Shown here one piece after another: positions 18,207 to 61,232 of a stretch of 64,000 bases of DNA. Positions within the stretch are counted from its first letter, which is position 1, and the number at the start of each line of letters is the position of its first letter. The position numbers and the translations under genes are program-made. A model generated the notes under the pieces. It had not been told where the DNA came from, ran no database searches, and worked only from the letters and a program-made list of their open reading frames with translations. Source of the DNA: Arthrobacter sp. D5-1 (GTDB lineage: Bacteria; Actinomycetota; Actinomycetes; Actinomycetales; Micrococcaceae); contig NZ_CP014571.1 of NCBI RefSeq assembly GCF_017357425.1, positions 186,001 to 250,000 on the forward strand. Direction: 5' to 3'.

Positions 18207-18983
18207 ATGCGACAGATCCCACGCTTTGACGTCCCCTCACGTCCCCCCGCCAACGCACCGCAAGGGAGCATCCAGCAAAGCTTTCAGGACAGCCTGATCC
18301 TGGACCACCTCAATCTGGCCAAGTCCATTGCCTCCAGGTACTCGGCCCACACCCACGACCTCGACGACGTCAGGCAGGTCGCATACATGGGCCTCATCAA
18401 GGCTTCGCGGGGTTATGACGAATCAAAAGGCGTCAGTTTCCCTGCCTACGCCGCGCCCACGATCGCCGGCGAGGTCAAACGCTACCTACGCGATCATTGC
18501 TGGGTGGTGCGCCCTCCGCGGACCATTCAGGATGTCCGCCGCCAAGTGCTGGCGCGGACGGAGGAAATGACCCAAACTCTGCAACGAACGCCAACGCCCG
18601 AGGAAGTGGCCCAGGACCTGGCCCTGGAGCCGTGCCAGGTGCGCGAAGCACTGATGGCCGGCACCAGCAAACGCCCGGATTCCCTGGATGCTCCAGTATC
18701 CGAGGGCCGCGAAGGCCTCCAAGGCTCGCTTTCGGCTTTCGGGTGCCCCACGGACCGCCTCGAGGACGTGCTGGCTCTCCGCAACGCCATCCGCGGACTG
18801 AGCGCCGAGGACCGGCACTTGCTCTACCGCCGTTACTACCGCGAGGAAACGCAGTCCACCATCGCCGAGGCCCTGGGGATGTCGCAAATGCAGGTATCGC
18901 GCAAGCTGTCCAAGATCCTGGTTTCCCTTCAAACCCAACTGCTGGACGAACAAGCCCATTTGCAGGACGGGACTGCACCCTAG
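18207..18983 (+). CDS. SigB/SigF-type alternative sigma factor
   Basis: A 258-aa group 3 sigma factor. Region 2 shows DDVRQVAYMGLIKASRGYDESKG, with core-binding and -10 recognition in SFPAYAAPTIAGEVKRYLRD. Region 3 is around TIQDVRRQVL and RTPTPEEVAQDL. Region 4 ends AEALGMSQMQVSRKLSKIL, a helix-turn-helix that contacts -35. Members of this family control general stress and stationary-phase genes. No anti-sigma factor or anti-anti-sigma factor gene is adjacent, which is unusual for the family. AGGA lies eleven bases before ATG 18207. Confidence 0.9.
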   Translation: MRQIPRFDVPSRPPANAPQGSIQQSFQDSLILDHLNLAKSIASRYSAHTHDLDDVRQVAYMGLIKASRGYDESKGVSFPAYAAPTIAGEVKRYLRDHCWVVRPPRTIQDVRRQVLARTEEMTQTLQRTPTPEEVAQDLALEPCQVREALMAGTSKRPDSLDAPVSEGREGLQGSLSAFGCPTDRLEDVLALRNAIRGLSAEDRHLLYRRYYREETQSTIAEALGMSQMQVSRKLSKILVSLQTQLLDEQAHLQDGTAP

Positions 18984-19025: not shown

Positions 19026-19976
19026 CTATGTGCCCAGCCTCTCCACGGCGTCCACAACGTCGCGGACACTGACGGCCAAAAGCGCCGGATCAGGATCGGC
19101 TGAGAACACATCACCGCGGCGGAGTTCGACGGCGGTCAGCACCTTGTGCGGTCCGGGCGGCGGTCCCCATTCTTCCGCGGGGGCGGGGCCGAACAGCACC
19201 ACGGACGGGCGCCCATAAGCGGACGCCAAGTGCGCTGCACCGGTATCGGCGGATACCACCAACCGCGCTTCGGCGATGGTGGCCGCGAACTCGGCAAGGC
19301 CTTGCCGCCCGGCCAGCAGGCCGTCGTCGAGGTTTGCTCCTTTGAGTTTCGCCAACGCGGCTGTCTGCTCAGCGCGCCCGCGCTCCGACGCGCCACCAGT
19401 GAGCACTACGTCGTGCCCGGCTGCCGCGAGTTCCGCCGCCACGTCCGCGAACCGATCCACGGGCCACAGCCGGCTGCCGTAGGCCGCGCCCACGTGGATC
19501 ACGGTGGCTCCCGGGCGCGACGAAGGGACAGCGGGGAGGTTCAACCGGTAGTCCAGGGGGTCGGCTTCGATGCCGTGCCAGTTGAGCAGTCGGGTCCAGC
19601 GCTCGCGTTCAGGCAAGCCCGAGGTCCAGGCCGGCCCATCGATCCCGGGTGCCTCGTGCGCGACCACCCGGTTGGCCCCCAGTTCCTCGATCCGGAGGCG
19701 GCTCTCGGCGCCGTTTCCGTGCAGGTTCACGGCAATGTCCACGGCCCCGTGCGGGACGGTCAGGGGGTCGTCGAGGCCCGGGGTAGGCAAGTGATGGATG
19801 CCGCCCACCAGTTCCAGGGCCTCGGCGATCCAGGCCGGTGCAGCGTACAGAATGCGGTGTTCGGGAAAGGCCCGCCGCAGGCCTCGAAGCGCCGGAACTG
19901 CGACCAAAAGGTCACCGAGCTTCAAGGCGCGCAGGGCAAGCAAAAGAGGTTGATCGTTGCGTTCAGCTGTATTCAT
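19026..19976 (-). CDS. Family 9 glycosyltransferase (heptosyltransferase-like)
   Basis: A 316-aa GT-B-fold protein. The N-terminal half begins LLALRALKLGDLLVAVPALR, which matches the nucleotide-heptose:LPS heptosyltransferase start (the acceptor-side Gly-Asp). The C-terminal half carries VIHVGAAYGSRLWP and the donor-binding motif VVSADTGAAHLASAYGRPSVVLFG. GGGAGG precedes ATG 19976. It is divergent from the gmhB-headed operon, starting 86 bases away, and so belongs to the same heptose locus. The acceptor is unknown, since these organisms lack LPS. Confidence 0.85.
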   Translation of the reverse strand: MNTAERNDQPLLLALRALKLGDLLVAVPALRGLRRAFPEHRILYAAPAWIAEALELVGGIHHLPTPGLDDPLTVPHGAVDIAVNLHGNGAESRLRIEELGANRVVAHEAPGIDGPAWTSGLPERERWTRLLNWHGIEADPLDYRLNLPAVPSSRPGATVIHVGAAYGSRLWPVDRFADVAAELAAAGHDVVLTGGASERGRAEQTAALAKLKGANLDDGLLAGRQGLAEFAATIAEARLVVSADTGAAHLASAYGRPSVVLFGPAPAEEWGPPPGPHKVLTAVELRRGDVFSADPDPALLAVSVRDVVDAVERLGT

Positions 19977-20062
19977 GGTGGCCTCCCGCTAGGAGTCTAG
20001 CGGCACGAAACTTCTCACCGCCGCACTGTTTAGCGTCCGGAGAACCGGGGAACGTTGCGGGT

Positions 20063-20617
20063 ATGGGAGGAACCGGAACGTTGAAGGCGGTCCTGTTTGA
20101 CCGCGATGGAACGCTGGTGGTTGACGTGCCTTACAACGGCGACCCGCAGCTGGTGCGGCCCATGGAAGGCGCCCTTGCGGCGCTGGAAGAAGTGCGCAGG
20201 GCAGGGCTTGCCACAGGGGTCCTCAGCAACCAGTCGGGTGTTGCCCGTGGGCTGCTGTCGATGGACCAGGTGGATGCCGTCAACCAGCGGGTGGAACAGT
20301 TGTTGGGCCCGTTCGACGTGTGGCAAGTATGTCCGCACGGGCCCGAGGACAGCTGCGAATGCCGTAAACCTGCGCCAGGCATGATCTTGGCTGCCTGCCA
20401 TGCCCTGGGCATCGAACCGTCCGAGGCTGCCTATGTTGGCGACATCGGTACTGACATGGACGCAGCCGCGGCAGCTGGTGCCCGCAGTGTGTTGGTGCCC
20501 ACGGAGATCACCCTGCACGAGGAGATTGAGGCTGCGGCCAATGTGGCCGTGGATCTTGGCCACGCGGTGAAGATCCTTCTTTCCGGGGTACCGGAAGAAC
20601 AGGACACCCCTGTATGA
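20063..20617 (+). CDS. gmhB: D-glycero-D-manno-heptose 1,7-bisphosphate 7-phosphatase-like HAD
   Basis: A 184-aa HAD-IIIA phosphatase that in the heptose pathway removes the 7-phosphate. Motif I is LFDRDGTLV; VLSNQSGVARG follows. The zinc loop CPHGPEDSCECRKP has the Cys-x-His...Cys-x-Cys pattern of GmhB/HisB-N proteins, and motif IV is VGDIGTDMDAAAAAG. The histidinol-phosphatase relatives share this fold, but the gmhA/hldE neighbourhood favours heptose. ATG 20063 lacks a ribosome site; TTG 20081 has GGGAGG ten bases before it and is a serious alternative. The 3' end overlaps the next gene by ATGA. Confidence 0.85.
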   Translation: MGGTGTLKAVLFDRDGTLVVDVPYNGDPQLVRPMEGALAALEEVRRAGLATGVLSNQSGVARGLLSMDQVDAVNQRVEQLLGPFDVWQVCPHGPEDSCECRKPAPGMILAACHALGIEPSEAAYVGDIGTDMDAAAAAGARSVLVPTEITLHEEIEAAANVAVDLGHAVKILLSGVPEEQDTPV

Positions 20618-21702
20618 GCCGGATCCTGGTAGCCCGCCTGGACAGCATGGGCGACGTCCTCCTTTCAGGACCCGCCCTGCGTGCTGTGGCCAACGGAAAC
20701 AGGCCGGATGGCAGCCGCCCAAACGACGTGGTCCTGCTTTGCGGTCCCGAAGGGTCAAGCGCGGCGGAGATGCTGCCCGGAGTCACCGAGGTTTACACCT
20801 GGGCCTGCCCCTGGATCGTGAACCCCGCACCCCCTGCAACCGAAGCGACGGCCCGCCGGCTGATCGACTTTGTCCGCAATTCCCGCATCGAGGAAGCCCT
20901 GATCCTCACGTCCTTCCACCAATCCCCCCTCCCGCTCGCACTGCTCCTGCGCTTGGCAGGCGTCAAGAAGATCACGGGTGCGTCCACGGACTATGCAGGC
21001 TCCCTGCTGGACGTCCGGCTCAAACCCGGCGAGGACTTCCCCGAGGACCAGCCGGAGGCGGTCCGCGCCCTCACCATCGCTGAGGCCGGTGGCTACGTTC
21101 TTCCCGACGGCGACGACGGGAAACTGCGCATCACTCCGGGGTCGGACCCGGGCGGCGTGGCGGACGAACTGGCTGAAGGTGGCCCGTACATCGTGGTCCA
21201 CCCGGGAGCCGCAGCACCCGCCAGGGCGTGGCCGGCCCTCCACCACGCCGCCACCGTGGAACTGCTCGAAGCATACGGGCATCGTGTGGTGGTCACGGGA
21301 GGTCCCGGGGAAACGTCCCTCACCGCAACGGTGGCAGGACCTTCGGCCAGGAACCTCGGCGGCGGAACCAACCTGCGGACGCTGGCAGCGGTACTTGCCG
21401 GTGCCGCCGTCGTGGTGACCGGAAATACAGGTCCCGCCCATCTGGCTGCAGCGGTGGGTACGCCGGTGGTCTGCCTGTTCGCACCCGTTGTCCCTGCGAT
21501 CCGCTGGGCACCTTACGGCGTTCCGCTGGAGCTGCTCGGCGACCAGGAAGCGGGTTGCAGGAACAGCCGCGCACGCATTTGTCCTGTTCCCGGGCATCCC
21601 TGCCTGAGCTCGGTATCCCCGGAACAGGTTGTCGAAGCTGTTGAAAGGCTCCTGGGAGGCGTGTCGTCACTGTCCACTCGTCGGAAGGTGTGGAAACCAT
21701 GA
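20614..21702 (+). CDS. Family 9 glycosyltransferase (heptosyltransferase-like)
   Basis: A 362-aa protein with the GT9 start RILVARLDSMGDVLLSGPALR and the C-terminal donor site VVTGNTGPAHLAAAVGTPVVCLF, which are the paired hallmarks of heptosyltransferases. VVHPGAAAPARAWP precedes the second Rossmann domain. Near the end, CRNSRARICPVPGHPC contains three cysteines and may bind a metal or form a structural knuckle. The ATG overlaps the gmhB stop (ATGA), implying translational coupling. It is the second gene of an operon of seven overlapping or closely spaced genes. Confidence 0.88.
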   Translation: MSRILVARLDSMGDVLLSGPALRAVANGNRPDGSRPNDVVLLCGPEGSSAAEMLPGVTEVYTWACPWIVNPAPPATEATARRLIDFVRNSRIEEALILTSFHQSPLPLALLLRLAGVKKITGASTDYAGSLLDVRLKPGEDFPEDQPEAVRALTIAEAGGYVLPDGDDGKLRITPGSDPGGVADELAEGGPYIVVHPGAAAPARAWPALHHAATVELLEAYGHRVVVTGGPGETSLTATVAGPSARNLGGGTNLRTLAAVLAGAAVVVTGNTGPAHLAAAVGTPVVCLFAPVVPAIRWAPYGVPLELLGDQEAGCRNSRARICPVPGHPCLSSVSPEQVVEAVERLLGGVSSLSTRRKVWKP

Positions 21703-22766
21703 GGATCCTGGTGTGGCATGTCCACGGCGGATGGATGGAGGCATTCGTCCGTGGCCGGCATGAGTACCTGCTGCCAACATCGTCCGACGGCGGCGCGTGG
21801 GGTTTGGGGCGTGGGGGCCGTGAATGGCCTGCTGCCGCCCGGGAAGTTGACCTGGAGACGCTCGATCCGGACAGCGTAGATGCCGTCGTCCTCCAACGGC
21901 CCGAGGAGATCACTGCGGTGGCCCGCACGCTGGGCCGGCGCCCGGGCCACGACCTCCCAGCCGTCTACCTCGAACACAACACACCCAAGGGCGACGTCCC
22001 GTTCACGCTTCATCCCTTGGCGGACCAGGGCAGCATCCCGGTGGTCCATGTGACCCATTTCAACCAGCTCTTCTGGGACACGGGCTCGGCGGCCACCACG
22101 GTGATCGAGCACGGCATCCCCGACCCCGGGCACCTGTACACCGGCGAACAGGTAGAGATGGGCGTGGTGGTCAACGAACCCGTCAGGCGTGGCCGTGTCA
22201 CGGGAACCGACCTCCTGCCCGGATTCGCCGGCGTGGGTCCGCTGCGGGTGTTCGGCATGGGGACGGAGGCGTTGCCGGAAGCACTGAATCTCAAGGGATT
22301 CGGTCTTAGCGAAAAACGGCTCCACATTGCCGGTGACGTGCAGGCGCCCAAACTCCATCAGGAACTGGCACGCTGCCGCCTGTACCTGCATCCGTTGCGG
22401 TGGACGTCGTTGGGGTTGGCCCTGCTGGAAGCCATGCATCTTGGCATGCCGGTGCTGGCACTGGACACCACCGAGGCGGGCCGCGCCGTACCGCATGGCG
22501 CAGGCCTCGTCTCCAACGACGTCGACGACCTCCAAAAGTTCGCCCGGCGGCTGCTGGACGACCCCGACGACGCGTACGCCATGGGGATCATCGCCCGTGA
22601 GGCCGCCTTGCAGCGCTACGGACTCGGTAGGTTTCTTCGGGCTTGGGACGAACTCCTGGCCGACCTGCCCCAGCACACCCACGGAGGAAGCCGTCCGCAA
22701 CCCGGCACGGCTTTCGCCAGCCATGACACAGAAGCCAGCCATGACACCGAGAGGACGCACCCATGA
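21699..22766 (+). CDS. GT-B glycosyltransferase
   Basis: A 355-aa protein starting MRILVWHVHGGWMEAFVRG. The C-terminal half has the glycosyltransferase-4 donor region (LHPLRWTSLGLALLEAMHLG, MPVLALDTTEA), where the S-L-G-L-A-L-L-E-A-M stretch replaces the usual E(x)7E. ATG 21699 overlaps the upstream stop (ATGA); an upstream GTG at 21690 is too close to the GGAAGG site. The C-terminus carries a tandem repeat ASHDTE-ASHDTE encoded by a duplicated 18-bp unit. The donor sugar could be heptose, given the neighbours, but the sequence does not prove it. Confidence 0.83.
   Translation: MRILVWHVHGGWMEAFVRGRHEYLLPTSSDGGAWGLGRGGREWPAAAREVDLETLDPDSVDAVVLQRPEEITAVARTLGRRPGHDLPAVYLEHNTPKGDVPFTLHPLADQGSIPVVHVTHFNQLFWDTGSAATTVIEHGIPDPGHLYTGEQVEMGVVVNEPVRRGRVTGTDLLPGFAGVGPLRVFGMGTEALPEALNLKGFGLSEKRLHIAGDVQAPKLHQELARCRLYLHPLRWTSLGLALLEAMHLGMPVLALDTTEAGRAVPHGAGLVSNDVDDLQKFARRLLDDPDDAYAMGIIAREAALQRYGLGRFLRAWDELLADLPQHTHGGSRPQPGTAFASHDTEASHDTERTHP
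22716..22751 (+). repeat. 18-bp tandem duplication inside a glycosyltransferase gene
   Basis: Two adjacent 18-bp units (22716-22733 and 22734-22751, beginning GCCAGCCATGACAC) differ at two positions and encode ASHDTE twice. This is likely replication slippage in a tolerant C-terminal tail. Confidence 0.8.
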
Positions 22767-24031
22767 AAATCTCCATGGTCTCCGAACACGCCAGCCCACT
22801 GGCTGCATTGGGAGGCGTTGATGCCGGCGGGCAGAACGTCCATGTGGCCGCGCTTTCGTCAAGCCTTGCTGATCGCGGCCACCAGGTCACGGTGTACACG
22901 CGGCGCGACGATCCGGACCTGCCCGCAAAGGTGCAGGTTGGTCCGGGACTCACCGTGGTCCACGTCGACGCCGGCCCTGCCCGCCGCATTCCCAAGGACG
23001 GGTTGCTGCCGTATATGGGTGCGCTGGCGGACGGGATCTGCGCGGACTGGGCCGGCCAGTTGCCGGACGTGGTCCATGCGCACTTCTGGATGTCCGGCCT
23101 TGCAGCCATCCAGGCCTCCCGGCGCGCCGGAGCACCAGACCCCGTGCCTGTAGTGCAGACCTTCCATGCCCTGGGTTCGGTGAAGCGCCGCCATCAAGGG
23201 TCCGCAGACACCAGCCCGCCGGCCAGGGAGTGGCTGGAACCCTGGGTTGGCCGCACGGCTGACTGGATCATCGCCACGTGCCCCGACGAGGTCTTCGAGC
23301 TCAAAGCCCTGGGCATCAGCCGGTCCAAGGTCTCCATTGCCCCCTGCGGCGTGGACCTCACGCTGTTCCCGGGAACCTCCGACGCCGAACCCAAGTCACG
23401 GACGCATCGCATCCTGAGCGTAGGGCGCCTCGTGCAACGGAAGGGCGTGGACACGGTGATCCAGGCCCTCCCGATCCTCGCTGAGGCAGGCTTCAAGGAC
23501 GTGGAGCTGTTGATCGTTGGTGGCTCCGGCGACGCCCTGACACTTGAGGAAGACCCGGAAGCCCAACGGCTCCATGCGTTGGCGAAGGAACTCGGGGTGG
23601 AGGACAAAGTGACCATGCGCGGGCAGGTTCCACGCGATGCGATGCCCGGCATTTTCCGCAGCGCCGACGCCGTGGTCTGTGCGCCTTGGTACGAGCCGTT
23701 CGGCATTGTGCCGTTGGAGGCCATGGCCTGCGGAGTGCCAGTGGTTGCGGCTGCAGTGGGCGGACTCCGGGAGACCGTCGTCGACCAAAAGACCGGGCTG
23801 CATGTCCCGCCGCGTGATCCGGAAGCCCTCGCCGAGGCACTCGGCAAGCTGCTGGCCGACCCGGAGCTGCGCGCCGACATGGGCCGGGCGGGCGCTCGCC
23901 GGGCACGCTCCCGCTACTCCTGGGAACGCGTTGCCGCCGACACCGAGAAAGCCTACCGATCCGTCCTGGCGGCCGGGCTGTCCCGGCAATCCGAGCAAGT
24001 CCTGGAACCATTGGAAGGAACGGCGCTGTGA
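22763..24031 (+). CDS. Family 4 glycosyltransferase
   Basis: A 422-aa retaining GT-B glycosyltransferase. It begins with an acceptor loop GGVDAGGQNVHVAALS of the sucrose-phosphate-synthase/MshA type. VHAHFWMSGLAA follows, then the phosphate-binding segment LSVGRLVQRKGVDTVI, and the donor-site E(x)7E motif EPFGIVPLEAMACGVPVVAA. MshA (mycothiol synthesis) is the nearest recognised relative, but the heptose operon context argues for a surface-glycan role. The ATG overlaps the preceding stop by ATGA; GTG of the next gene overlaps its stop. Confidence 0.87.
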   Translation: MKISMVSEHASPLAALGGVDAGGQNVHVAALSSSLADRGHQVTVYTRRDDPDLPAKVQVGPGLTVVHVDAGPARRIPKDGLLPYMGALADGICADWAGQLPDVVHAHFWMSGLAAIQASRRAGAPDPVPVVQTFHALGSVKRRHQGSADTSPPAREWLEPWVGRTADWIIATCPDEVFELKALGISRSKVSIAPCGVDLTLFPGTSDAEPKSRTHRILSVGRLVQRKGVDTVIQALPILAEAGFKDVELLIVGGSGDALTLEEDPEAQRLHALAKELGVEDKVTMRGQVPRDAMPGIFRSADAVVCAPWYEPFGIVPLEAMACGVPVVAAAVGGLRETVVDQKTGLHVPPRDPEALAEALGKLLADPELRADMGRAGARRARSRYSWERVAADTEKAYRSVLAAGLSRQSEQVLEPLEGTAL

Positions 24032-24714
24032 TGATCAAAGGCCTTGCGACCACCGGGTCCAGCACCTCGACCACTGTCCAGGCGCGCTGGGTACCCAACG
24101 TCACCGACCCTACCCACACCGCTGAGGTCACCACACACCTGGACAACGTCCTGCCAGCGCTGGAGTCGCTGCGCTCGCAGTCCGGGCGCCTGTCCGCATG
24201 GGGAACCGAACTCGCCACCAGGCTGCTCTCCGGACAACGACTGCTGGCGGCAGGCAACGGCGGCTCAGCTGCTGAGGCGCAACACCTGACAGCTGAACTG
24301 GTGGGCAGGTTCGACGAAGAACGCGCGCCCTTCTCCGCCATCTCCCTGCACGCAGAGTCCTCCGCCGTCACCGCACTGTCCAACGACTACGGCTACGAGG
24401 AAGTCTTCGCCCGGCAAGTCAGGGCACATGGGCGGGCGGGCGATGTGCTTCTCCTTCTCTCCACCAGCGGACGCAGCCCCAATCTGCTCAAAGCCGCCCG
24501 TGCGGCAAGGGAACGCGGCATCGCAACGTGGGCTCTCACCGGTCCGGGCCCCAACCCCCTTTCCGATGCCTGCGATCAAGCCATCACCGTGGACGCCATC
24601 GCCGCCAACGCCCAGGAAGGCCACCTCATCGCAATCCATGCAGTGTGCCGGGCCTTCGACGCCGAGGTCGCCCAGCGCGCAGGTTCAAGCTCCTTCGGGG
24701 CGGGGCAACCATGA
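24028..24714 (+). CDS. gmhA: Sedoheptulose-7-phosphate isomerase (SIS domain)
   Basis: A 228-aa protein. It carries the GmhA signatures LLAAGNGGSAAEAQHLTAEL with VGRF, SNDYGYEEVFARQV, and the SIS phosphate loop LLSTSGRSPNLLKAA. The enzyme isomerises sedoheptulose 7-phosphate to D-glycero-D-manno-heptose 7-phosphate, the entry step to nucleotide heptoses. An N-terminal extension of ~40 residues is longer than in E. coli. GTG 24028 overlaps the previous stop; ATG 24031 is an alternative three bases on. It ends ATGA with the HldE-like gene, which performs the next step. Confidence 0.9.
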   Translation: MMIKGLATTGSSTSTTVQARWVPNVTDPTHTAEVTTHLDNVLPALESLRSQSGRLSAWGTELATRLLSGQRLLAAGNGGSAAEAQHLTAELVGRFDEERAPFSAISLHAESSAVTALSNDYGYEEVFARQVRAHGRAGDVLLLLSTSGRSPNLLKAARAARERGIATWALTGPGPNPLSDACDQAITVDAIAANAQEGHLIAIHAVCRAFDAEVAQRAGSSSFGAGQP

Positions 24715-26114
24715 GGATCACAGTCGTAGGCGACGTCCTTCTGGACGTTGACATCAACGGGGCAGCCACCCGGCTCAGCCCCGACGCGCCGGTACCGGTG
24801 GTGGACGTCGGCGACATCCGGCGTCGTGCAGGAGGCGCCGGGCTCGTGGCCACCGTGTTGGCCCAGGACGGCCACAGCGTTTCGCTGGTCACCGCACTAT
24901 CGGACGACGACGGCGCCAGCCACCTCAAGCGCGCCCTGTCCGGGGTGTCTGTGCTCACCGGAGTCCCGCTCGCCCCCACGCCCACCAAGACACGGGTGCG
25001 GATCGGGACACACCCGATGGTCCGGTTCGACGAAGGGTGCGCCCCCGCCCCTGTTCCCGCCAGCACGGGGGAGATGCTCGCAGCCATCGCCTCGGCGGAA
25101 GCCATTGTGGTGGCCGACTACGGCCGGGGAATGACCGCCAACACCGAGATCCGTGCCGCGCTCGCCGATGCTGTACGCCGCGTCCCCGTGGTGTGGGATC
25201 CGCATCCTGCTGGTTCCGAGCCCGTGCAAGGCGTCGCCGTCGTGACGCCGAACCTTGCCGAGGCCATCGCGGCGGCGAAAGCGGCCGGGCTGGAACCGTC
25301 CACGGGTGCCGAGGAAGCAGGCCGGTACCTGCTCGAAAGATGGGGAAGCAGCGCCGTTTTGGTGACCAGGGGTGCGGACGGGGCGCTCTTGATGTCAGCC
25401 GGAGCCGCGCAGGGTATCCCCGCCCCCAGAACCAACGTCAGCGACCCCTGTGGAGCCGGCGACCGACTGGCCGGCAGCCTTGCCGTGCACTTGGGATCAG
25501 GGATGGACCTCGCACAGGCCGCCGCCCGGGCAGTGGAGGATGCGTCCGCCTTCCTGGCAGGGGGTGGAGCGGCGGCGTTGGCGGTGGTGACCGAAGCGCC
25601 CGACGCCGGCCCCGTCGTCGAGCTTAAAGGTCTGGAACTCGTGGGAGCCGACGACCTTGACCCGGATGGTGTCCAGCTGGCTCGGGCGGTGCGGGCCGGA
25701 GGAGGCACTGTGGTGGCCACGGGCGGATGCTTCGATCTCCTCCACGCCGGTCACGCCCGGACGCTGGCCGCCGCGCGTGGTATGGGCGACTGCCTTATCG
25801 TTTGCCTGAATTCCGATGAATCGGTCAGGCGGCTCAAGGGTCCACATCGGCCAATCGTCAGCGTGGAGGACCGCGCGGAGTTGCTGCTGGCACTCGAATG
25901 CGTCGACGCCGTGGTGGTCTTCGGCGAGGACACTCCCGAAGCCTGCCTCACCGAACTGCGGCCCGATATTTGGGTCAAGGGTGGCGACTACACTCCCGAA
26001 GAATTGCCGGAAGCCCGCTTGGTGGCGGGTTGGGGAGGGCGCTGCGTCACTGTGCCCTTCCATCCGGCACGCTCCACCAGCGGCCTGGCTGCAGCCCTGG
26101 CCAAGGTCAGCTGA
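24711..26114 (+). CDS. hldE: HldE-like bifunctional heptose-7-phosphate kinase / heptose-1-phosphate nucleotidyltransferase
   Basis: A 467-aa fusion. Residues ~1-300 form a PfkB/ribokinase fold (TVVGDVLLDVD, VVADYGRGM, VVTPNLAEA). Its catalytic loop reads DPCGAGDRLAG, keeping the essential GAGD but with an unusual Arg-Leu after it. Residues ~325-467 form a cytidylyltransferase-like domain with VVATGGCFDLLHAGHARTL (HxGH) and the KGGDYTPEEL motif, which match HldE's C-terminal domain. It would make heptose 1,7-bisphosphate and later ADP-heptose, on either side of GmhB. ATG 24711 overlaps the gmhA stop. It is one of two such proteins in the locus. Confidence 0.87.
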   Translation: MRITVVGDVLLDVDINGAATRLSPDAPVPVVDVGDIRRRAGGAGLVATVLAQDGHSVSLVTALSDDDGASHLKRALSGVSVLTGVPLAPTPTKTRVRIGTHPMVRFDEGCAPAPVPASTGEMLAAIASAEAIVVADYGRGMTANTEIRAALADAVRRVPVVWDPHPAGSEPVQGVAVVTPNLAEAIAAAKAAGLEPSTGAEEAGRYLLERWGSSAVLVTRGADGALLMSAGAAQGIPAPRTNVSDPCGAGDRLAGSLAVHLGSGMDLAQAAARAVEDASAFLAGGGAAALAVVTEAPDAGPVVELKGLELVGADDLDPDGVQLARAVRAGGGTVVATGGCFDLLHAGHARTLAAARGMGDCLIVCLNSDESVRRLKGPHRPIVSVEDRAELLLALECVDAVVVFGEDTPEACLTELRPDIWVKGGDYTPEELPEARLVAGWGGRCVTVPFHPARSTSGLAAALAKVS

Positions 26115-26173
26115 CAACAACACCGTCAGCTGAGAACAAGCACCCAAGCAACCGATCAACCGAGAGGAACCGC

Positions 26174-26869
26174 ATGAACACGCAAACACCTGGTCGCGTC
26201 ATCGTCACTGGAGGCGGCTCCGGCCTTGGCGCTGCGATCGTGGAAGCCATCCGCGACGCCGGTGGCACGCCCTTCGTCTTCGACCGCGATGTAAGCAACG
26301 TCTCCGGGGCCAAAGCCCTGGAAGTGGACGTCTCCAACCGGGAAGCAGTGGAAGCCGCCGTCAAGGAGGCCGCCGACACCCTGGGCGGGCTCGATGGCGT
26401 GGTGACCGCGGCAGGCATCGACCGCTGCGGCAAGCTGGGCGATGTCCCTGCCGCCGAATGGGAAAAGGTCATTGGGGTGAACCTCCTGGGCACGGTGTCC
26501 GTAGTCCGGGCGGCCTTGCCGTACCTCAAGGAATCCCGCGGACGGGCCATCACCATTGCGTCCACGCTGGGTTTGAGGGCACTGCCGGATGCCACTGCCT
26601 ACTGCGCCTCGAAGTTCGGTGTGATCGGCTTCAGCCGCGCATTGGCTGCCGAAACCGGGGGAGTCATAGGCGTCACCACCATCATCCCGGGCGGTATGAA
26701 GACCCACTTCTTCGATGATCGGGATGAGCAGTACAAGCCGCAGGACGATTCCAAACTGAACGATCCCGCCAATGTGGCGCAGGCAGTGGTGTTCGCGCTC
26801 TCGCAGCCGTTCGGCAGCGAAGTCCGTGAGCTGCTTATCTGCCCCGCAGAAGAAGGCTCGTGGCCGTAA
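26174..26869 (+). CDS. SDR-family oxidoreductase
   Basis: A 231-aa classical short-chain dehydrogenase with [13 protein letters not shown] at the cofactor site, the aspartate of DRDVSN, the catalytic serine in ITIASTLGLRA and the YCASK tyrosine/lysine pair. GAGAGGAA precedes ATG 26174, 59 bases after hldE. In this operon it could reduce or epimerise a sugar intermediate, but a classical SDR is not the usual HldD. Its last 35 bases overlap the convergent GT9 gene. Confidence 0.84.
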   Translation: MNTQTPGRVIVTGGGSGLGAAIVEAIRDAGGTPFVFDRDVSNVSGAKALEVDVSNREAVEAAVKEAADTLGGLDGVVTAAGIDRCGKLGDVPAAEWEKVIGVNLLGTVSVVRAALPYLKESRGRAITIASTLGLRALPDATAYCASKFGVIGFSRALAAETGGVIGVTTIIPGGMKTHFFDDRDEQYKPQDDSKLNDPANVAQAVVFALSQPFGSEVRELLICPAEEGSWP

Positions 26870-28001
26870 GGTCCAGCACGTCCTGAACAACGTCGGCCAC
26901 GGCGATGCCCTCGATGAGGGTGTCGTCGTGGCCGCAGTGCGGTGCCGTCCATCCCACCTGGGTCACGTCCGCTCCGCAGCGCGGGCACTGCGTAGCCCAC
27001 GACATATGGACGCGGTGCAAGGCCCGCCCTCGAGGGCCCGCATTGAACGCGTTCCCCACCCAATAGATCCCTACCGTCGGGGTCCCCACTGCCTGGGCAA
27101 GGTGCCGGGGACCGCTGTCACTGGCGAGCATCACCGTGGCTTCACCCAGGAGTGCCGCCAAGTCTCCGATCTCCAGTTCGCCGGCCACGGAGCGCACGGC
27201 CTGCCGCTGGTTCTCCGCCAGTTGCCTGCCCGCGAGCTCGGACACTTCCTGCGTCAGCGCCTTCTCCGAACGGTCGCCCACAATCAACACTTGCGCACCT
27301 TCCCGCACTAAGGTTGCCGCCGCTTCAGCAAAATACGATGCCGGCCACCGCCTCCGCGGATCGGTGGCACCCGGATGGAGCACCACCAACGATGTCCGCT
27401 GATGGTCCTTGAAACCCGCAATGTTCCGTTGATGTTCCAGCGTCGGGAGCAGGGGAGGGGCGACGATCGACGGAGCGCCGGCCAGGCCTGCGACCTCCAA
27501 CCAGCGGTCCGGTTCATTCTGGTAGTAGACGTAATCAAGGTTCCGCTCCAGCCGTTCCGCGTCCCGGGTGCGCGTGCCCACGGTATGCCGGGCGCCCAGG
27601 CGGAGCAGGAAAGGGTTGGAGAAGCGCCCTCCGCCGTGCATCTGCAACGCGATGTCGAATTTCCTGGCACGCATGGCCTCGAAAAAGGCCTCTTGCGCCG
27701 CGACGTCCCCAGCATCATCCTCGAAGCGCTCGCCGTTGCGCGGACCGTCGTGGACGCCCCGCGTCACTGGCAGCATTTGGACGTCGTCTACCGGACCTTC
27801 CGTCGCGGCAACCACTGCCGCGTGGATCGGTGTGCCCAGCACGGTGATGGTGGCAGCAGGGTAGGCCTCCTTGAGGGCGTGGAGGGCAGGGAAGGTGTAG
27901 ATCAGGTCGCCCAAGCCGCCACCCCGGAGGACCGCAATCCGCTTCACGTCGCTGAACATTTCCAGCACGGGACCGACGCCGGGCTTGGGAGGAAGATTCA
28001 T
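26835..28001 (-). CDS. Family 9 glycosyltransferase (heptosyltransferase-like)
   Basis: A 388-aa protein with the GT9 N-terminal motif IAVLRGGGLGDLIYTFPALH and the C-terminal donor site LASDSGPRHLAQAVGTPTVG. VVLHPGATDPRRRWP marks the interdomain region. A cysteine-rich segment QCPRCGADVTQVGWTAPHCG near the C-terminus could bind zinc; it has no counterpart in the other two GT9 proteins of the locus. ATG 28001 is chosen for AAGGA seven bases upstream; a longer frame reaching 28118 would overlap the divergent hldE-like gene. The two divergent starts lie 110 bases apart. Confidence 0.86.
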   Translation of the reverse strand: MNLPPKPGVGPVLEMFSDVKRIAVLRGGGLGDLIYTFPALHALKEAYPAATITVLGTPIHAAVVAATEGPVDDVQMLPVTRGVHDGPRNGERFEDDAGDVAAQEAFFEAMRARKFDIALQMHGGGRFSNPFLLRLGARHTVGTRTRDAERLERNLDYVYYQNEPDRWLEVAGLAGAPSIVAPPLLPTLEHQRNIAGFKDHQRTSLVVLHPGATDPRRRWPASYFAEAAATLVREGAQVLIVGDRSEKALTQEVSELAGRQLAENQRQAVRSVAGELEIGDLAALLGEATVMLASDSGPRHLAQAVGTPTVGIYWVGNAFNAGPRGRALHRVHMSWATQCPRCGADVTQVGWTAPHCGHDDTLIEGIAVADVVQDVLDLTATSLLLRGR

Positions 28002-28111
28002 GAGCAATTCCTTCTTCAGGGTGGCGGAAACTCCCGGGCCGGGCGTGTGAAGCGCCTGCCGCGGGGTACCTGAGGGGAACAGGAAACTGTCGCCCAACCG
28101 GAAGGTACCCC

Positions 28112-29662
28112 ATGGCACGCCTATCCAATCAAGAAGGCCTGGCTGACTGGTTGCCAGGCCGCTTGGCCGAGGAACGTCCTGTTGTGACGGTCATCGGCGA
28201 TTCCATACTGGACGGCTGGTGGGATGGGACCATTGAGCGGTTCTGCCGCGAAGCCCCGGCTCCCGTCGTCCAGGTCCAGCGCCGCGACTTCGCCCCGGGA
28301 GGAGCCGCCAACACGGCGATGAACCTCGCTGCGATGGGGGCGGAGGTTCGTTTCATTTCGCTGATCGGAGAGGACCCGGCGGGCCGCACGCTCCTTGACC
28401 AGCTCCGCTCGGCAGGGGTGGACGTTTCGCATGTGGTCTCGCACCCCGCGATGACCACCACCACCAAATTCCGGGTGAGCAGTGGCGGGCAGGTCATGCT
28501 GCGGCTGGACGACTCGGCAACCGACCTTCCGGCCGAAGGCCTCCGCCACATGGCCGATGCCATTCCCGAAGCACTTCCCGGCTCGTCGGCCGTGGTCCTC
28601 TGCGACTACGGGGCGGGTGCTTTGGAAGGAGCTGTGCGCGAGGCCATTCTTGAAAATTTGGGGCCGGGGAGTGAGGGCGGGCAATCCACCCCAGCAGTGG
28701 TTCGGCAGGACATCCTGGTGGTAGTGGACGCCCACTATCCCGGACAGTGGGCCGACCTCAAACCTGACCTCGCAACCCCAAACGCCCAGGAAGCGGCCAG
28801 ATTGCTTGGGACCGAGTTGCCCGGAGGCGCTGCCAGGTGCCCCTTCGTGGAAGCCCACGCAGACCAGCTCCTTCGCGCCTCAGGTGCGGGCGCCGTCGTC
28901 GTGACGTTGGACCGGGAGGGCACGCTGACGGTTCGCCCCGGCGGCACCTCCCAGGAGCCGGCCACCCACCGAACGTGGGCGCGGCCCCAGGCGGAAAAAC
29001 AGGCCTCGGGCGCCGGGGATACCTTCGTGGCCGCGTTGACCATTGCCCGTGCTGCCGGATTGCCGCTGACCACCAGCGTGGATCTGGCCCAGGCTGCAGC
29101 AGATGTTGTCGTCCACCGGCCAGGCACCTCCGTCTGCACCACCGACGAACTCGCCAAGCACCTCCGGGGCTTTGCGGATACAGCACTGACGGACGCCGAG
29201 TTGGCGCGGCAGGTGGAGGAGCACCGCAGGGAGGGTAAGCGGATTGTGCTCACCAACGGGTGCTTCGATGTCCTTCACCGCGGCCACACCCGATACCTCA
29301 ACCAGGCCAAGCAGTTGGGTGATGTACTGGTGGTCGCACTGAACAGCGATTCTTCGGTGCGGAAGCTCAAGGGCCCGGACCGGCCGGTCAACCATGAAGC
29401 TGACCGTGCGGCAGTCATCGCTGCCCTGAGTTGCGTGGACCATGTCATCGTTTTTGATACCCCCACTCCCATACCGCTTATAGACCTCCTGCAGCCCGAC
29501 ATTTACGCCAAAGGCGGCGACTACACGCCGGAGATGCTCCAGGAAACCGTGGCCGTGGAGCGCTATGGCGGCACCGTGACCATCCTGGACTACGTGGCCG
29601 AGCACTCCACAACAGCCGTGCTGGAGCGCATCCGCGCTACGGGCGACGGTCCGCAAACCTAA
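28112..29662 (+). CDS. hldE: Second HldE-like heptose kinase / nucleotidyltransferase fusion
   Basis: A 516-aa fusion with the same architecture as the other HldE-like protein but longer. The kinase half has TVIGDSILDGWWDG, the substrate loop FAPGGAANTAMNLAAMGAE, VVLCDYGAGAL, and a canonical SGAGDTFVAAL catalytic loop. The nucleotidyltransferase half has VLTNGCFDVLHRGHTRYL (HxGH), LNSDSSVRKLKGPDRPVN and YAKGGDYTPEM. The GGAA pattern resembles E. coli HldE more closely than the first copy does. GGAAGG precedes ATG 28112. Two copies may mean two different heptose products, or division of labour between kinase and nucleotidyltransferase. Confidence 0.88.
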   Translation: MARLSNQEGLADWLPGRLAEERPVVTVIGDSILDGWWDGTIERFCREAPAPVVQVQRRDFAPGGAANTAMNLAAMGAEVRFISLIGEDPAGRTLLDQLRSAGVDVSHVVSHPAMTTTTKFRVSSGGQVMLRLDDSATDLPAEGLRHMADAIPEALPGSSAVVLCDYGAGALEGAVREAILENLGPGSEGGQSTPAVVRQDILVVVDAHYPGQWADLKPDLATPNAQEAARLLGTELPGGAARCPFVEAHADQLLRASGAGAVVVTLDREGTLTVRPGGTSQEPATHRTWARPQAEKQASGAGDTFVAALTIARAAGLPLTTSVDLAQAAADVVVHRPGTSVCTTDELAKHLRGFADTALTDAELARQVEEHRREGKRIVLTNGCFDVLHRGHTRYLNQAKQLGDVLVVALNSDSSVRKLKGPDRPVNHEADRAAVIAALSCVDHVIVFDTPTPIPLIDLLQPDIYAKGGDYTPEMLQETVAVERYGGTVTILDYVAEHSTTAVLERIRATGDGPQT

Positions 29663-29673
29663 GGAAGGATGCC

Positions 29674-30708
29674 ATGCGTATTGTGATCACCGGTGCCACC
29701 GGGCACGTTGGCACCGAAGTCCTGAAGCGGCTCCAGGCTGCGCGCTCGGAAGAAGGAGCAGACCTTGACCTTGTGGGCATTGTCCGTCGGCAGCCCGACC
29801 AGGACGCGCCTCCCTACCAAGGGGTCGAGTGGCACACTGTGGATATCGGCGATCGCAAGGACCAGCCTGCGCTGGAAGCTGCCCTGGCCGGAGCCGACGC
29901 CGTGGTGCACCTTGCCTGGTTAATCCAGCCGAACCACAACCGCGAACTGCTTCGCCGGACCAACGTGGCGGGAACGGCCCACGTGTTGGCCGCAGCCCGG
30001 AAAGCCGGGGTCGGGCACGTTGTGTGTGCTTCGTCCGTGGGTGCCTATTCACCAGCACCCAAGGGCCAGCGGACCAAGGAGGGTTGGCCGGCGGCGGGTA
30101 TCCGCACGTCCCACTACAGTGCGGACAAAGCCGCGCAGGAGAGGATCCTGGACAGCTTCGCGAAGGAGAACCCGGAGATCGTGGTGGCCCGTCTTCGTCC
30201 TGCGTTGACGTTCAGCGACGGGGCAGGCAGCGAAGTAGGCCGGTACTTCCTGGGCCGGGTGCTGCCGCGGCTGGTTCCCCGCAAGCCCCGGTTGCCGCTG
30301 CTGGCTCTTCCCAAGGAACTGGTGTTTCAGGCTGTACACGCCGCCGACGTCGCCGACGCCTATTGGCGCGCGCTGGAGCGCAAGGCCGAAGGTGCCTTCA
30401 ACATCGCCGCAGAACCCGTGATCGACCCCAACGCCTTGGCGTGGATTTTCAACGCCCGGCGGTTGCTGCCGTTCCCGCTTCCGGTGCTTCGCGCCGCCGT
30501 CGAGGTCAGTTGGCGTCTCCGTTTGCAGGCGACGGACGGCGGGTGGGTGGATATGGCAGCCAATGCGCCCATCATGGACACTTCCCGGGCACATGGTCTC
30601 CTGGGCTGGTCGCCCAAGCATTCCTCGCTGGAATCACTGGCGGAAATGCTCGACGGGATCGGTGCAGGAAAGGGCCGTAAAGCCTCGCCGCCACTGCATC
30701 CGCGCTAG
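29674..30708 (+). CDS. NAD-dependent epimerase/dehydratase family protein
   Basis: A 344-aa extended SDR. It begins MRIVITGATGHVGTEVLK (TGxxGxxG site), has DAVVHLAW, the catalytic-region CASSVGAYSP and the active tyrosine/lysine in YSADK. AAGGAAGGA precedes ATG 29674, 11 bases after the hldE-like gene, so it is probably in the same transcript. By position it could act as the missing HldD-type heptose epimerase, but it does not look like a close HldD relative, so this is only inference. It ends three bases before the convergent FUSC gene. Confidence 0.83.
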   Translation: MRIVITGATGHVGTEVLKRLQAARSEEGADLDLVGIVRRQPDQDAPPYQGVEWHTVDIGDRKDQPALEAALAGADAVVHLAWLIQPNHNRELLRRTNVAGTAHVLAAARKAGVGHVVCASSVGAYSPAPKGQRTKEGWPAAGIRTSHYSADKAAQERILDSFAKENPEIVVARLRPALTFSDGAGSEVGRYFLGRVLPRLVPRKPRLPLLALPKELVFQAVHAADVADAYWRALERKAEGAFNIAAEPVIDPNALAWIFNARRLLPFPLPVLRAAVEVSWRLRLQATDGGWVDMAANAPIMDTSRAHGLLGWSPKHSSLESLAEMLDGIGAGKGRKASPPLHPR

Positions 30709-30711
30709 CCC

Positions 30712-31794
30712 TTACTCGGCCGTCAGCACTACCGTGAGGATCCGGCGGAGACTCATGGCGACGGACGCCGGTGCGTTCACCGGTGCATGATCGGCGGCAG
30801 CGCCGGCTACAGCATCGCTGAGGGCAGAGATGCTGTCCTTCGCTGCGGCCAGGCGGTTGGCGAGTTCCCCGGACTCTGCATCCCGCCAGCGATCGATCAC
30901 TGCGGCTACCGCTTCCAAGGATTCAGCCAGGTTTCCCACTACTGAGTCGGGGATGACCGTCCCTGCACCTTCTTCCCAGATGGCGCTTGCCAGGACATCG
31001 GTGATGTCCTGGACGTGGAACGTGAGCCGCTCAAGGGTCCTCAATCCGGCGAGGTCGCCGGGGATCCGGGTTGCCCGACGGCGGGACCTGGGGTTTGCTT
31101 TGGCGCTCAGCTCTGCCTGGTGAACGGCAGTCCGCACAGCTGCGGCGGTGAGCGAGAGATCATCGCTTCGGCTGGCCCAAGCCTCGTGGTTGGGCGGCCA
31201 GGACTCTTGCATGGCTTCGGCCATGTCCTTAAGTTGACGGGACAATGCTCCCTGGTGTCCGGCGATCGCGGGATCAATGTCGTCAAGGTGCAGGGGTGGA
31301 AACACGAGCCAGTTCACGGTGAAGCCGACAGCAACCCCCAACCCCATTTGAAGAACGTAGGCAAACGAGAATCCTTCAGCGTTGGAATCACCCAGCACCA
31401 GCACGAACAACGCCGCCATGGGGATCCATTCGGACGCTGTCCCCAGCCGTGGGAGACCGCCAATGAGAACGCCAAGTCCAACCACCAGGGCAACGGCCAA
31501 GGCGGTCGGTGCGGCCACGGTGGTGATGGCGAAGGCCATGCCGATGCCCAACACCAGCCCGGCCAGGCTTTGGAGCCCATGTTTGGCGGAGTCGGCAACA
31601 GTGGGGTGCATGCTGACCAGGGCGCCCAGGGGCGCGTAGTACGGGTACGCAGCGGCGGAGCCGGGCATGAAGGGCGCGAGGTACCAGGCGAGGCCTGCTG
31701 CAGCGGCCGTTTTGGCAGCGAACAGGAGTCGGTGGCGGGTGACAGTTTTTCGAAGCGCGGGAATCAGCCGTCGCCTCGCGGGCAGTTGGCTCAT
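30712..31794 (-). CDS. FUSC-family membrane protein
   Basis: About 360 aa. The N-terminal ~180 residues hold six hydrophobic helices including the FUSC/aromatic-acid-exporter repeat ALGALVSMHPTVADSAKHGL and WIPMAALFVLVLGDSN. The C-terminal ~170 residues are a helical cytoplasmic domain (TLERLTFHVQDITDVLASA). Such proteins are thought to export organic acids or similar compounds. ATG 31794 has GGGGTG before it. An upstream frame is open to 31911 but without a site. The gene is divergent from the envelope operon, with an 8-bp inverted repeat between them. Confidence 0.8.
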   Translation of the reverse strand: MSQLPARRRLIPALRKTVTRHRLLFAAKTAAAAGLAWYLAPFMPGSAAAYPYYAPLGALVSMHPTVADSAKHGLQSLAGLVLGIGMAFAITTVAAPTALAVALVVGLGVLIGGLPRLGTASEWIPMAALFVLVLGDSNAEGFSFAYVLQMGLGVAVGFTVNWLVFPPLHLDDIDPAIAGHQGALSRQLKDMAEAMQESWPPNHEAWASRSDDLSLTAAAVRTAVHQAELSAKANPRSRRRATRIPGDLAGLRTLERLTFHVQDITDVLASAIWEEGAGTVIPDSVVGNLAESLEAVAAVIDRWRDAESGELANRLAAAKDSISALSDAVAGAAADHAPVNAPASVAMSLRRILTVVLTAE

Positions 31795-31912
31795 CACCCC
31801 AACATTCGCAGGTATGGTCCCGGCTGTCGAGCCGAAAGCGCAGAACGTGAGCAGGGACATCAATTCGTTCGATTGGGTGATTAGAACCCCCGCAAACGGG
31901 TACACACCCATT

Positions 31913-31934
31913 GATAGTAACGATACTTACTATC
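31913..31934. promoter_or_regulatory. Candidate operator (perfect inverted repeat) in a divergent promoter region
   Basis: GATAGTAA (31913-31920) and TTACTATC (31927-31934) form a perfect 8-bp inverted repeat with a 6-base centre in an otherwise GC-rich stretch. It lies 45 bases before ATG 31979 and 119 bases before the divergent FUSC start. The size and symmetry suit a dimeric repressor such as a TetR, GntR or MarR protein; no cognate regulator gene is adjacent. Confidence 0.5.
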
Positions 31935-31978
31935 CCGGCTGCTGTCCGCAGCCTGCCAACTGTGGAAAGAGAGCGATA

Positions 31979-55730: not shown

Positions 55731-60948
<5,218 letters not shown>

Positions 60949-60962
60949 CACAACACACTGCA

Positions 60963-60995
60963 CGCGTCCACTATGTGGTTCCCGAACAACAACCC
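60963..60995 (+). other. 23S processing stem, right arm
   Basis: Complementary to 57636-57668 (see that entry). It begins 15 bases after the end of the 23S gene. Confidence 0.75.
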
Positions 60996-61101
60996 GCACC
61001 AAGGGTTGCCGGAACCAACAACTAAATAACAACACCACAGTTGTAACCACAAAGTCTTCCCACCCACCCCCACCAACAAGGGGGCCGGGACGGGTAACAG
61101 A

Positions 61102-61218: not shown

Positions 61219-61232
61219 ACAACCATTAAGGC

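What the first reader, a model, noticed from the sequence alone, without database searches (positions are those of the whole stretch)
19026..30708. Near-complete ADP-heptose pathway with three GT9 proteins in a Gram-positive
GmhA, GmhB and two HldE-like fusions, plus three heptosyltransferase-like GT9 proteins and two other glycosyltransferases, occupy one 11.7-kb locus. In Gram-negatives these make LPS core heptose, but Arthrobacter has no LPS. The cluster predicts a heptose-bearing surface glycan, glycolipid or glycoprotein of unknown structure. ADP-heptose is also an innate-immune signal in animals, which adds interest.
Basis: partly seen in the sequence, partly recalled or inferred. Interest (0 to 1): 0.72.

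Follow-up and report, generated by a model that had tools for sequence, protein, structure and literature searches.

The report
Actinobacterial heptose-glycan cluster with stress promoter
A soil bacterium without the usual lipopolysaccharide pathway carries a set of genes to make and attach heptose, a sugar best known from Gram-negative surfaces; the set recurs in about a quarter of the actinomycete genomes sampled and, in its own order, sits behind a conserved promoter of the general-stress type, which points to a widespread stress-linked heptose glycan of unknown structure.

Summary
GmhA, GmhB, two HldE-type fusions, three GT9 proteins (all the GT9 matches in the genome) and two GT4-like glycosyltransferases lie at 19026-30708, in a Paenarthrobacter-like genome with no LpxC match. 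The heptose reading is well supported by motifs and co-occurrence: HldE and GT9 are both present in 42 of 149 family genomes, only one in 4. It is not an Arthrobacter curiosity: GTx, a marker of the core, occurs in 98 of 394 class genomes, including 91 of the 93 with strong HldE matches. New points: (1) the two HldEs are separate old lineages; (2) HldE2, often with an aldehyde dehydrogenase and a GT2 (both missing here), was never seen in one core locus with the alternative carbamoyltransferase (0 of 75); (3) in Micrococcales a SigB-type promoter precedes gmhB in 41 of 41 loci tested, and the genome's best SigB/F/G sigma gene lies next door. Best reading: a general-stress-inducible heptose oligosaccharide, probably envelope-bound. 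Product, acceptor, location and induction are not shown. Nearest named system: the Streptomyces coelicolor cwg operon. Actinobacterial NDP-heptose synthesis itself is already in print.

The parts
18207..18983 (+). SigB/SigF/SigG-type sigma factor gene
   Evidence: TIGR02980 205.6 bits, cut-off 234.35; best of three matches in the genome, the others 130.0 and 86.2 bits; a homologue lies within 2.5 kb upstream of gmhB on the same strand in 22 loci, all Micrococcales
19026..19976 (-). GT9A, heptosyltransferase-like GT9
   Evidence: PF01075 83.9 bits; TIGR02193 77.4 bits, below cut-off
20028..20053 (+). SigB-type promoter candidate GTTTAG-N14-GGGAAC; first base 35 bp, last base 10 bp before the first base of the gmhB start codon
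   Evidence: looser pattern in 41 of 41 Micrococcales loci tested, 3 of 21 others, 50 of 1470 ORF-upstream regions; six controls 0-5 of 41; 24 of 24 after thinning
20063..20617 (+). GmhB, heptose-1,7-bisphosphate 7-phosphatase-like
   Evidence: PRK08942 121.9 bits; best solved relatives D,D-heptose 1,7-bisphosphate phosphatases 4pnh and 3l8e, with DRDG(T) and CPH..CxCRKP aligned
20614..21702 (+). GT9B, heptosyltransferase-like GT9
   Evidence: PF01075 82.2 bits; relatives 3tov, 1psw, 2gt1
21699..22766 (+). GTx, GT4-like glycosyltransferase; marker of the cluster
   Evidence: PF13692 47.5 bits; AlphaFold model mean pLDDT 87.9 matches GT4 enzymes; 98 of 394 class genomes
22763..24031 (+). GT4 glycosyltransferase related to sucrose-phosphate synthase and MshA
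   Evidence: 6kih 232.7 bits, MshA-type chains 3c4q/3c48 173.1/172.7 bits; MshA model 255.9 bits, cut-off 462.5
24028..24714 (+). GmhA, sedoheptulose-7-phosphate isomerase-like
   Evidence: PRK13936 164.0 bits; phosphoheptose isomerase 5i01 133.4 bits
24711..26114 (+). HldE1, heptose-7-P kinase/heptose-1-P nucleotidyltransferase fusion
   Evidence: PRK11316 296.4 bits; 5x9q and 4e84 aligned, GAGD, HAGH and KGGDY present; own lineage in the tree
26174..26869 (+). SDR1, classical short-chain dehydrogenase/reductase; best conserved core gene among the nearest relatives
   Evidence: PF00106 136.8 bits on the longer frame; 97-98% identity in L016-L020, 55-62% in L048, L050, L051, L057, L071, L075
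26835..28001 (-). GT9C, heptosyltransferase-like GT9
   Evidence: PF01075 over cut-off in the genome search; TIGR02195 69.6 bits, below cut-off; 3tov, 1psw
28112..29662 (+). HldE2, second heptose kinase/adenylyltransferase fusion
   Evidence: PRK11316 346.5 and TIGR02199 196.1 bits, the latter over its cut-off; GAGD, HRGH and KGGDY present; own lineage in the tree
29674..30708 (+). SDR2, extended SDR/epimerase-like; accessory gene
   Evidence: PF01370 92.6 bits; HpnA-like 69.9, heptose 6-epimerase model 20.7 bits; SDR2 homologues in 15 of 52 core loci

Best explanation
The locus makes a nucleotide-activated D-glycero-D-manno-heptose from sedoheptulose 7-phosphate (GmhA isomerase, HldE kinase, GmhB phosphatase, HldE nucleotidyltransferase), and the GT9 enzymes together with the GT4-type enzymes build it into a short heptose-containing oligosaccharide on a still unknown acceptor, most likely an envelope lipid or wall precursor at the inner face of the membrane, exported by machinery encoded elsewhere. 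HldE1 belongs to the core found across Actinomycetes; HldE2 is a separately evolved second donor-making enzyme of one cluster type. In Micrococcales the gmhB transcription unit starts at a SigB-type promoter, probably read by the sigma factor encoded next door, so the glycan is made under general stress. Shown by sequence: gene content, motifs, co-occurrence, two HldE lineages, promoter conservation. Inferred: D,D configuration, donor identity, acceptor, location, stress induction.
For: Family and structure matches with motifs present. All three GT9 matches of the genome are here. HldE and GT9 both in 42 of 149 family genomes; HldE and GTx both in 91 of 394 class genomes, GTx only 7, HldE only 2. 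Core order GmhB>GT9B>GTx>GT4>GmhA>HldE1>SDR1 on one strand in 47 of 75 core loci, GT4>GmhA>HldE1 in 65 of 75. Promoter pattern in 41 of 41 Micrococcales loci tested, 24 of 24 after thinning, six controls 0-5 of 41; it resembles the B. subtilis SigB consensus GTTTAA-N12-14-GGGA/TAA/T quoted in PMC8346170 (passages). Sigma gene next door. No LpxC match, no 6-epimerase over cut-off. From print, not compared by sequence: the cwg operon is an envelope-stress target (PMC6767563, passages) and a gene named ADP-heptose:LPS heptosyltransferase rises under salt in a tolerant Frankia (PMC5563000, passages).
Against: Nearly all NCBIfam scores are below equivalog cut-offs. No sugar, nucleotide sugar or transcript was measured. 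No membrane protein belongs to the core, so an envelope location is inference. GT9B has Asn where 3tov has Asp in the DSGPxH motif. The promoter's -10 box ends nine bases short of the predicted gmhB start, so the transcript would be nearly leaderless or the true start lies further on. The pattern was widened after a stricter one failed. The exact form occurs three times in the genome against five for its reversed control, so it does not outline a regulon. Outside Micrococcales the promoter is seen in 3 of 21 loci and the sigma gene in none of the 20 that have 2.5 kb upstream.
Confidence: 0.55

Rival explanations
1. The product is a soluble cytoplasmic heptose oligosaccharide (a protectant or a glycosylated small polyol or ketose phosphate), not an envelope glycan. 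GT4 would start it on a small phosphorylated acceptor, as sucrose-phosphate synthase and MshA do.
For: GT4's best solved relatives are sucrose-phosphate synthase 6kih (232.7 bits) and MshA (173 bits); no convincing membrane segment in a core protein by simple hydropathy, GT9B having two windows just over 1.9; SigB-type promoter.
Against: Gram-negative LPS-core clusters also use soluble glycosyltransferases (recalled), so lack of membrane proteins is weak evidence; five glycosyltransferases suggest more than a small solute; [quoted passage not shown]
Confidence: 0.2
2. The GT9 enzymes heptosylate proteins, in the manner of the E. coli aah system.
For: Protein heptosylation with NDP-heptose in E. 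coli is mentioned in PMC11461863 (part 1 of 2 of its text); no lipid-carrier enzyme in the core.
Against: No evident substrate protein among the ten recurring neighbours given to Pfam (other neighbours were not identified); several glycosyltransferases and, in other lineages, a carbamoyltransferase suggest an oligosaccharide.
Confidence: 0.1
3. The cluster belongs to a specialised metabolite, as in septacidin or hygromycin B producers.
For: S7P-derived heptose in septacidin and hygromycin B is known (Tang 2018, seen only as a reference in PMC10948575).
Against: No NRPS or PKS among the ten recurring neighbours given to Pfam (the rest not identified); occurrence in 45 of 137 sampled genera is broad for a specialised metabolite.
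Confidence: 0.05
4. The HldE/GmhA set acts on another sugar phosphate and the heptose names are inherited labels.
For: Scores under equivalog cut-offs for GmhA, GmhB and the kinase domains.
Against: HldE2's nucleotidyltransferase passes its curated cut-off; four enzyme types of one pathway plus GT9 sit together and co-occur across genomes; best solved relatives are heptose enzymes for GmhA, GmhB and the kinase domain.
Confidence: 0.1

Closest known systems
cwg operon (SCO6179-SCO6190) of Streptomyces coelicolor
   Same: By annotation it has the run transferase (SCO6185), phosphoheptose isomerase (SCO6186), bifunctional synthase/transferase (SCO6187), transferase (SCO6188) (PMC5839063, passages), which resembles GT4-GmhA-HldE1-next gene here; it is stress-controlled and predicted to make a cell-wall glycan (PMC6767563, passages).
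   Different: It is a SigmaE (envelope-stress) target with an AAC/TC-type promoter, not a SigB-type one; it is a 12-gene operon; its sequence was not compared here.
Gram-negative ADP-heptose pathway and LPS heptosyltransferases (GmhA/HldE/GmhB, WaaC/WaaF/WaaQ)
   Same: Same enzyme families and motifs.
   Different: No LpxC match, no 6-epimerase over cut-off, two HldE proteins, GT9s well below the LPS heptosyltransferase equivalog cut-offs.
Actinobacterial NDP-heptose synthetases (Tang et al. 2022, Sci China Life Sci; seen only as a reference)
   Same: NDP-heptose synthesis in actinobacteria, so the chemistry is not new.
   Different: The title speaks of tridomain enzymes; here GmhA is separate and HldE1/HldE2 are didomain.
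   Same: Share GmhB, GT9B and GTx, and most also GT4, GmhA, HldE1 and often SDR1; L098 has no GmhA or HldE1 hit.
   Different: Carry a NodU-like carbamoyltransferase, mostly with an epimerase and a GT2, instead of GT9C-ALDH-HldE2-GT2a; HldE2 and carbamoyltransferase together in 0 of 75 core loci.

Membership tests
ADP-D-glycero-D-manno-heptose pathway | Four activities: S7P isomerase, heptose-7-P kinase, 1,7-bisphosphate 7-phosphatase, heptose-1-P nucleotidyltransferase | tested here: met
   GmhA, HldE1/HldE2, GmhB by family, solved relatives and motifs; most scores below equivalog cut-offs; activity not tested
ADP-L-glycero-D-manno-heptose pathway | ADP-heptose 6-epimerase HldD | tested here: not met
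   No match over the TIGR02197 cut-off of 274.6 in the genome, best 132.2 bits; SDR2 20.7 bits
GT9 heptosyltransferases | PF01075 domain with N-terminal GD motif and D-S/T-G-x-x-H motif | tested here: met
   PF01075 over cut-off for all three; motifs aligned with 3tov for GT9B and GT9C, Asn for Asp in GT9B; GT9A read by eye; meaning of the motifs recalled
GT9 heptosyltransferases | Use of ADP-heptose as donor | not testable with these tools
   needs an enzyme assay
LPS core biosynthesis | Lipid A pathway (LpxC) | tested here: not met
   PF03331: no match in the genome; control rings in 4 of 14 genomes
S. coelicolor cwg operon | Transferase - phosphoheptose isomerase - bifunctional synthase - transferase run | tested here: inconclusive
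   Order matches by annotation only; sequences not compared; the promoter-based look-up failed
S. coelicolor cwg operon | SigmaE-type promoter | not tested
   only SigB-type patterns were scanned
Tridomain NDP-heptose synthetases of actinobacteria | Isomerase, kinase and nucleotidyltransferase on one chain | tested here: not met
   HldE1 and HldE2 are kinase plus nucleotidyltransferase; GmhA is a separate ORF
SigB regulon promoter | GTTTAA-N12-14-GGG(A/T)A(A/T) upstream of the gene | tested here: met
   GTTTAG-N14-GGGAAC: five of six bases in each box, spacing 14; sequence only, and the -10 box lies very close to the predicted start codon
SigB regulon promoter | Transcription depends on a SigB-type sigma factor | not testable with these tools
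   needs transcript data
NTP-promiscuous heptose nucleotidyltransferases | Arg at position 5 of (F/L)xxGxSTT | tested here: inconclusive
   HldE1 has Arg in FHPARSTS but not the Gly; HldE2 has His in YVAEHSTT; Arg in 47 of 51 parsed HldE1 and 29 of 80 parsed HldE2 rows, 5 HldE1 and 2 HldE2 rows not parsed; motif from PMC11461863

The most novel reading that the evidence does not exclude
Micrococcales possess a general-stress-induced heptose glycan assembled from two different nucleotide-heptose donors: HldE1 (Arg-5 type, perhaps CDP/UDP/ADP) and the separately evolved HldE2, which, often with an aldehyde dehydrogenase and a GT2, forms an exchangeable decorating module that stands in for the epimerase/carbamoyltransferase module of other actinomycetes. 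This would be a widespread envelope or cytosolic stress glycan with no described structure.
Probability: 0.3. Interest if true: 0.75.

Novelty: new variant of a known kind. Interest (0 to 1): 0.55.

Why it matters
If right, heptose chemistry, usually tied to LPS, serves a glycan in about a quarter of the sampled genomes of the class (98 of 394 with GTx), and 91 of the 93 genomes with strong HldE matches also have GTx: one dominant, structurally unknown use of heptose in these bacteria. The conserved SigB-type promoter says when to look for it (general stress), which makes the product searchable in laboratory strains and gives a handle on the cwg-type operons. Two HldE lineages in one locus also make donor specificity directly testable.

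Tried and rejected
Rejected: recent duplication of HldE. In a 155-row tree HldE1 (68 rows) and HldE2 (84 rows) each fall on one side of a branch (support 100 and 98), and three Gram-negative HldEs join the HldE2 side. Quick method, midpoint root, long outgroup branches; hits of 250 bits or less or spanning 1200 bases or less were dropped before the count.

Rejected: SDR2, ArAE, ANTAR and the holin and DUF3618 genes as core. The first three recur in 15, 7 and 1 of 52 core loci; holin and DUF3618 families were found in 6 of 85 loci each.

Rejected: that the missing aldehyde dehydrogenase lies elsewhere in the genome. Best of 17 matches 35% identity, against 58-62% for the ALDH hits in loci L137, L140, L141 and L143 from other families. 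The ALDH ends within 150 bp upstream of HldE2 in 37 of 80 named loci. Against a strict ALDH-HldE2 module: one core locus (L137) has ALDH with carbamoyltransferase, and L140 and L143 have ALDH without an HldE2 over 250 bits.

The 20 loci were hand-picked from the GTx hits; 12 have carbamoyltransferase, 5 have neither, and the remaining 3 (L132, L133, L141) have HldE2.

Full report
Observation. The window lies at C1:186001-250000 of a 5.12-Mb genome; the nearest relatives by HldE2 and GTx are Paenarthrobacter and Arthrobacter. Reading frames and family scans confirm GmhB, GmhA, two HldE fusions, three GT9 proteins and two GT4-like glycosyltransferases at 19026-30708, plus two SDR genes. PF01075 finds exactly three matches in the genome, all here. 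Most curated equivalog cut-offs are not reached; the adenylyltransferase domain of HldE2 passes its cut-off.

Enzymes. Best solved relatives: for both HldEs, heptose-7-P kinase 4e84 and chain 5x9q, labelled putative cytidylyltransferase (that this is Burkholderia HldC is recalled); for GmhA, phosphoheptose isomerases; for GmhB, D,D-heptose 1,7-bisphosphate phosphatases; for GT9B and GT9C, the GT9 protein 3tov and LPS heptosyltransferase II 1psw. Motifs seen in these alignments: GAGD, HxGH and KGGDY in both HldEs, DRDG(T) and CPH/CxCRKP in GmhB, QHLTAEL and QEGHLIAIH in GmhA; their catalytic meaning is recalled. GT9B has Asn for Asp in the DSGPxH motif. No HldD over cut-off and no LpxC match in the genome, so the heptose is most likely D,D and the usual LPS pathway is absent.

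Spread. In 149 genomes of the family, HldE (E<1e-30) and GT9 are both present in 42, HldE only in 1, GT9 only in 3. In 394 genomes of the class, GTx (E<=1e-20) is present in 98 (45 of 137 genera), HldE (E<=1e-35) in 93, both in 91. Genomes are not independent, so the p-values only say that the link is far from chance.

Architecture. Over 105 loci compared (80 named ones fetched by HldE2, 5 plasmid loci, 20 unnamed ones hand-picked from GTx hits), 75 hold at least five of the seven core genes. The order GmhB>GT9B>GTx>GT4>GmhA>HldE1>SDR1 on one strand, with no other core gene between, holds in 47 of 75, GT4>GmhA>HldE1 in 65 of 75. Two types appear. One has GT9C (60 of the 80 named loci), often an aldehyde dehydrogenase (PF00171; directly before HldE2 in 37 of 80) and a GT2 (42 of 80; after HldE2 in the loci drawn out). 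The other has a NodU-like carbamoyltransferase, mostly with an epimerase and another GT2. HldE2 with carbamoyltransferase: 0 of 75; HldE2 without it 56, carbamoyltransferase without HldE2 14, neither 5. The named set is enriched for HldE2 by how it was fetched. ALDH is not strictly bound to HldE2: one core locus has ALDH with carbamoyltransferase. The window's lineage has the HldE2 type without ALDH and GT2 in the locus, and its genome has no close ALDH relative. A Burkholderia multivorans plasmid carries a carbamoyl-type cluster with GTx at 34% identity, so the theme crosses the Gram divide.

Two HldE lineages. A tree of 155 rows separates HldE1 (68) from HldE2 (84) without exception; the three Gram-negative HldEs included join the HldE2 side. 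The HldE of the carbamoyl-type loci in the tree is HldE1. At position 5 of the motif that PMC11461863 (commentary, part 1 of 2) links to NTP choice, HldE1 has Arg in 47 of 51 parsed rows and HldE2 in 29 of 80; the window has Arg in HldE1 and His in HldE2. This suggests, but does not show, different donors.

Regulation. Upstream of gmhB the window has GTTTAG-N14-GGGAAC at 20028-20053; its last base is followed by nine bases and then the predicted start codon, so the transcript would be nearly leaderless or the start lies further on. The pattern GTTT-N14-16-GGGnA is found upstream of gmhB in 41 of 41 Micrococcales loci tested and 3 of 21 others, against 50 of 1470 upstream regions of called ORFs. 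The spacer varies while the two boxes stay. Six controls on the same 41 sequences give 0 to 5; after thinning to 24 dissimilar upstream regions 24 of 24 keep it, 22 of 24 in a tighter form. The pattern was widened after a first strict scan failed. The B. subtilis SigB consensus is GTTTAA-N12-14-GGGA/TAA/T (PMC8346170, passages; PMC9847131, passages, gives N15 plus or minus 2). The SigB/F/G-type sigma gene at 18207-18983 is the best such match in the genome, 205.7 bits against 130.0 and 86.2, all below the family cut-off. A homologue lies within 2.5 kb upstream of gmhB on the same strand in 22 loci, all Micrococcales; the 20 loci with at least 2.5 kb upstream and no sigma are all outside that order. 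Many Micrococcales loci had too little upstream sequence to judge. The Streptomyces plasmid copy lies among GAF-ANTAR, PP2C, STAS and CsbD genes. Against this, the exact motif is not enriched genome-wide.

Mechanism. S7P is isomerised (GmhA), phosphorylated at C1 (HldE kinase), dephosphorylated at C7 (GmhB) and activated (HldE nucleotidyltransferase); this order of steps is recalled pathway knowledge. GT9A-C, GTx and GT4 then build an oligosaccharide. GT4 is related to sucrose-phosphate synthase and MshA. GTx has a GT4-type fold (pLDDT 87.9) with Thr at the place of the first Glu of EX7E (invariant T236 and E244 in 32 sequences; the EX7E rule is recalled). No core protein has a convincing membrane segment by simple hydropathy, GT9B having two windows just over 1.9, so assembly is probably cytoplasmic and export, if any, is encoded elsewhere. 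I commit to an envelope-bound stress glycan as most likely, with a cytosolic oligosaccharide as the main rival.

Known work. Actinobacterial NDP-heptose synthesis is in print (Tang 2022, seen as a reference, not held). The S. coelicolor cwg operon has phosphoheptose isomerase and bifunctional synthase genes in a similar order by annotation (PMC5839063, passages), is a SigmaE target induced by vancomycin (PMC6767563, passages), and cwgA is activated by salt (PMC13011467, passages). A gene named ADP-heptose:LPS heptosyltransferase rises under salt in a tolerant Frankia (PMC5563000, passages). In ten searches of the open library I found no paper on this cluster or on its SigB-type promoter in Micrococcales.

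Verdict. New variant of a known kind; interest 0.55.

Noticed in passing
window 55732-61220: A complete rRNA operon (16S 55732-57251, 23S 57792-60949, 5S 61104-61220, + strand) explains the low-GC, gene-poor stretch at 55-61 kb; ARAGORN found no tRNA in the window.
   Followed up: yes
L100 (Arthrobacter sp. StoSoilB13, 1.0-Mb record labelled plasmid): The cluster with sigma, SDR2 and ArAE homologues lies on a megabase record labelled plasmid and listed without gene annotation; either the cluster is on a large replicon there or the record is chromosomal.
   Followed up: no
   Followed up: partly
L050, L083 (Kibdelosporangium), L064 (Microbacterium), L075 (Nocardia), L081 (Agromyces): The HldE1 frame that holds the best hit ends after the kinase domain in these loci, so the nucleotidyltransferase may be split off, missing or out of frame in the assembly.
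   Followed up: no
L154 (G000:C2:301128-301152): One of the two other exact promoter-pattern sites in the genome lies 63 bases before a 91-aa ORF that looks like a small DUF2188-type protein (family recalled, not searched).
   Followed up: partly
window 30712-33932: ArAE-type, Holin-X family and DUF3618 genes directly behind the cluster are kept in the nearest relatives and rarely elsewhere.
   Followed up: partly
L098 (Burkholderia multivorans plasmid): The Gram-negative carbamoyl-type cluster lies beside two sigma-54-dependent regulators and an ABC transporter gene, a possible export partner that the actinobacterial core lacks.
   Followed up: no
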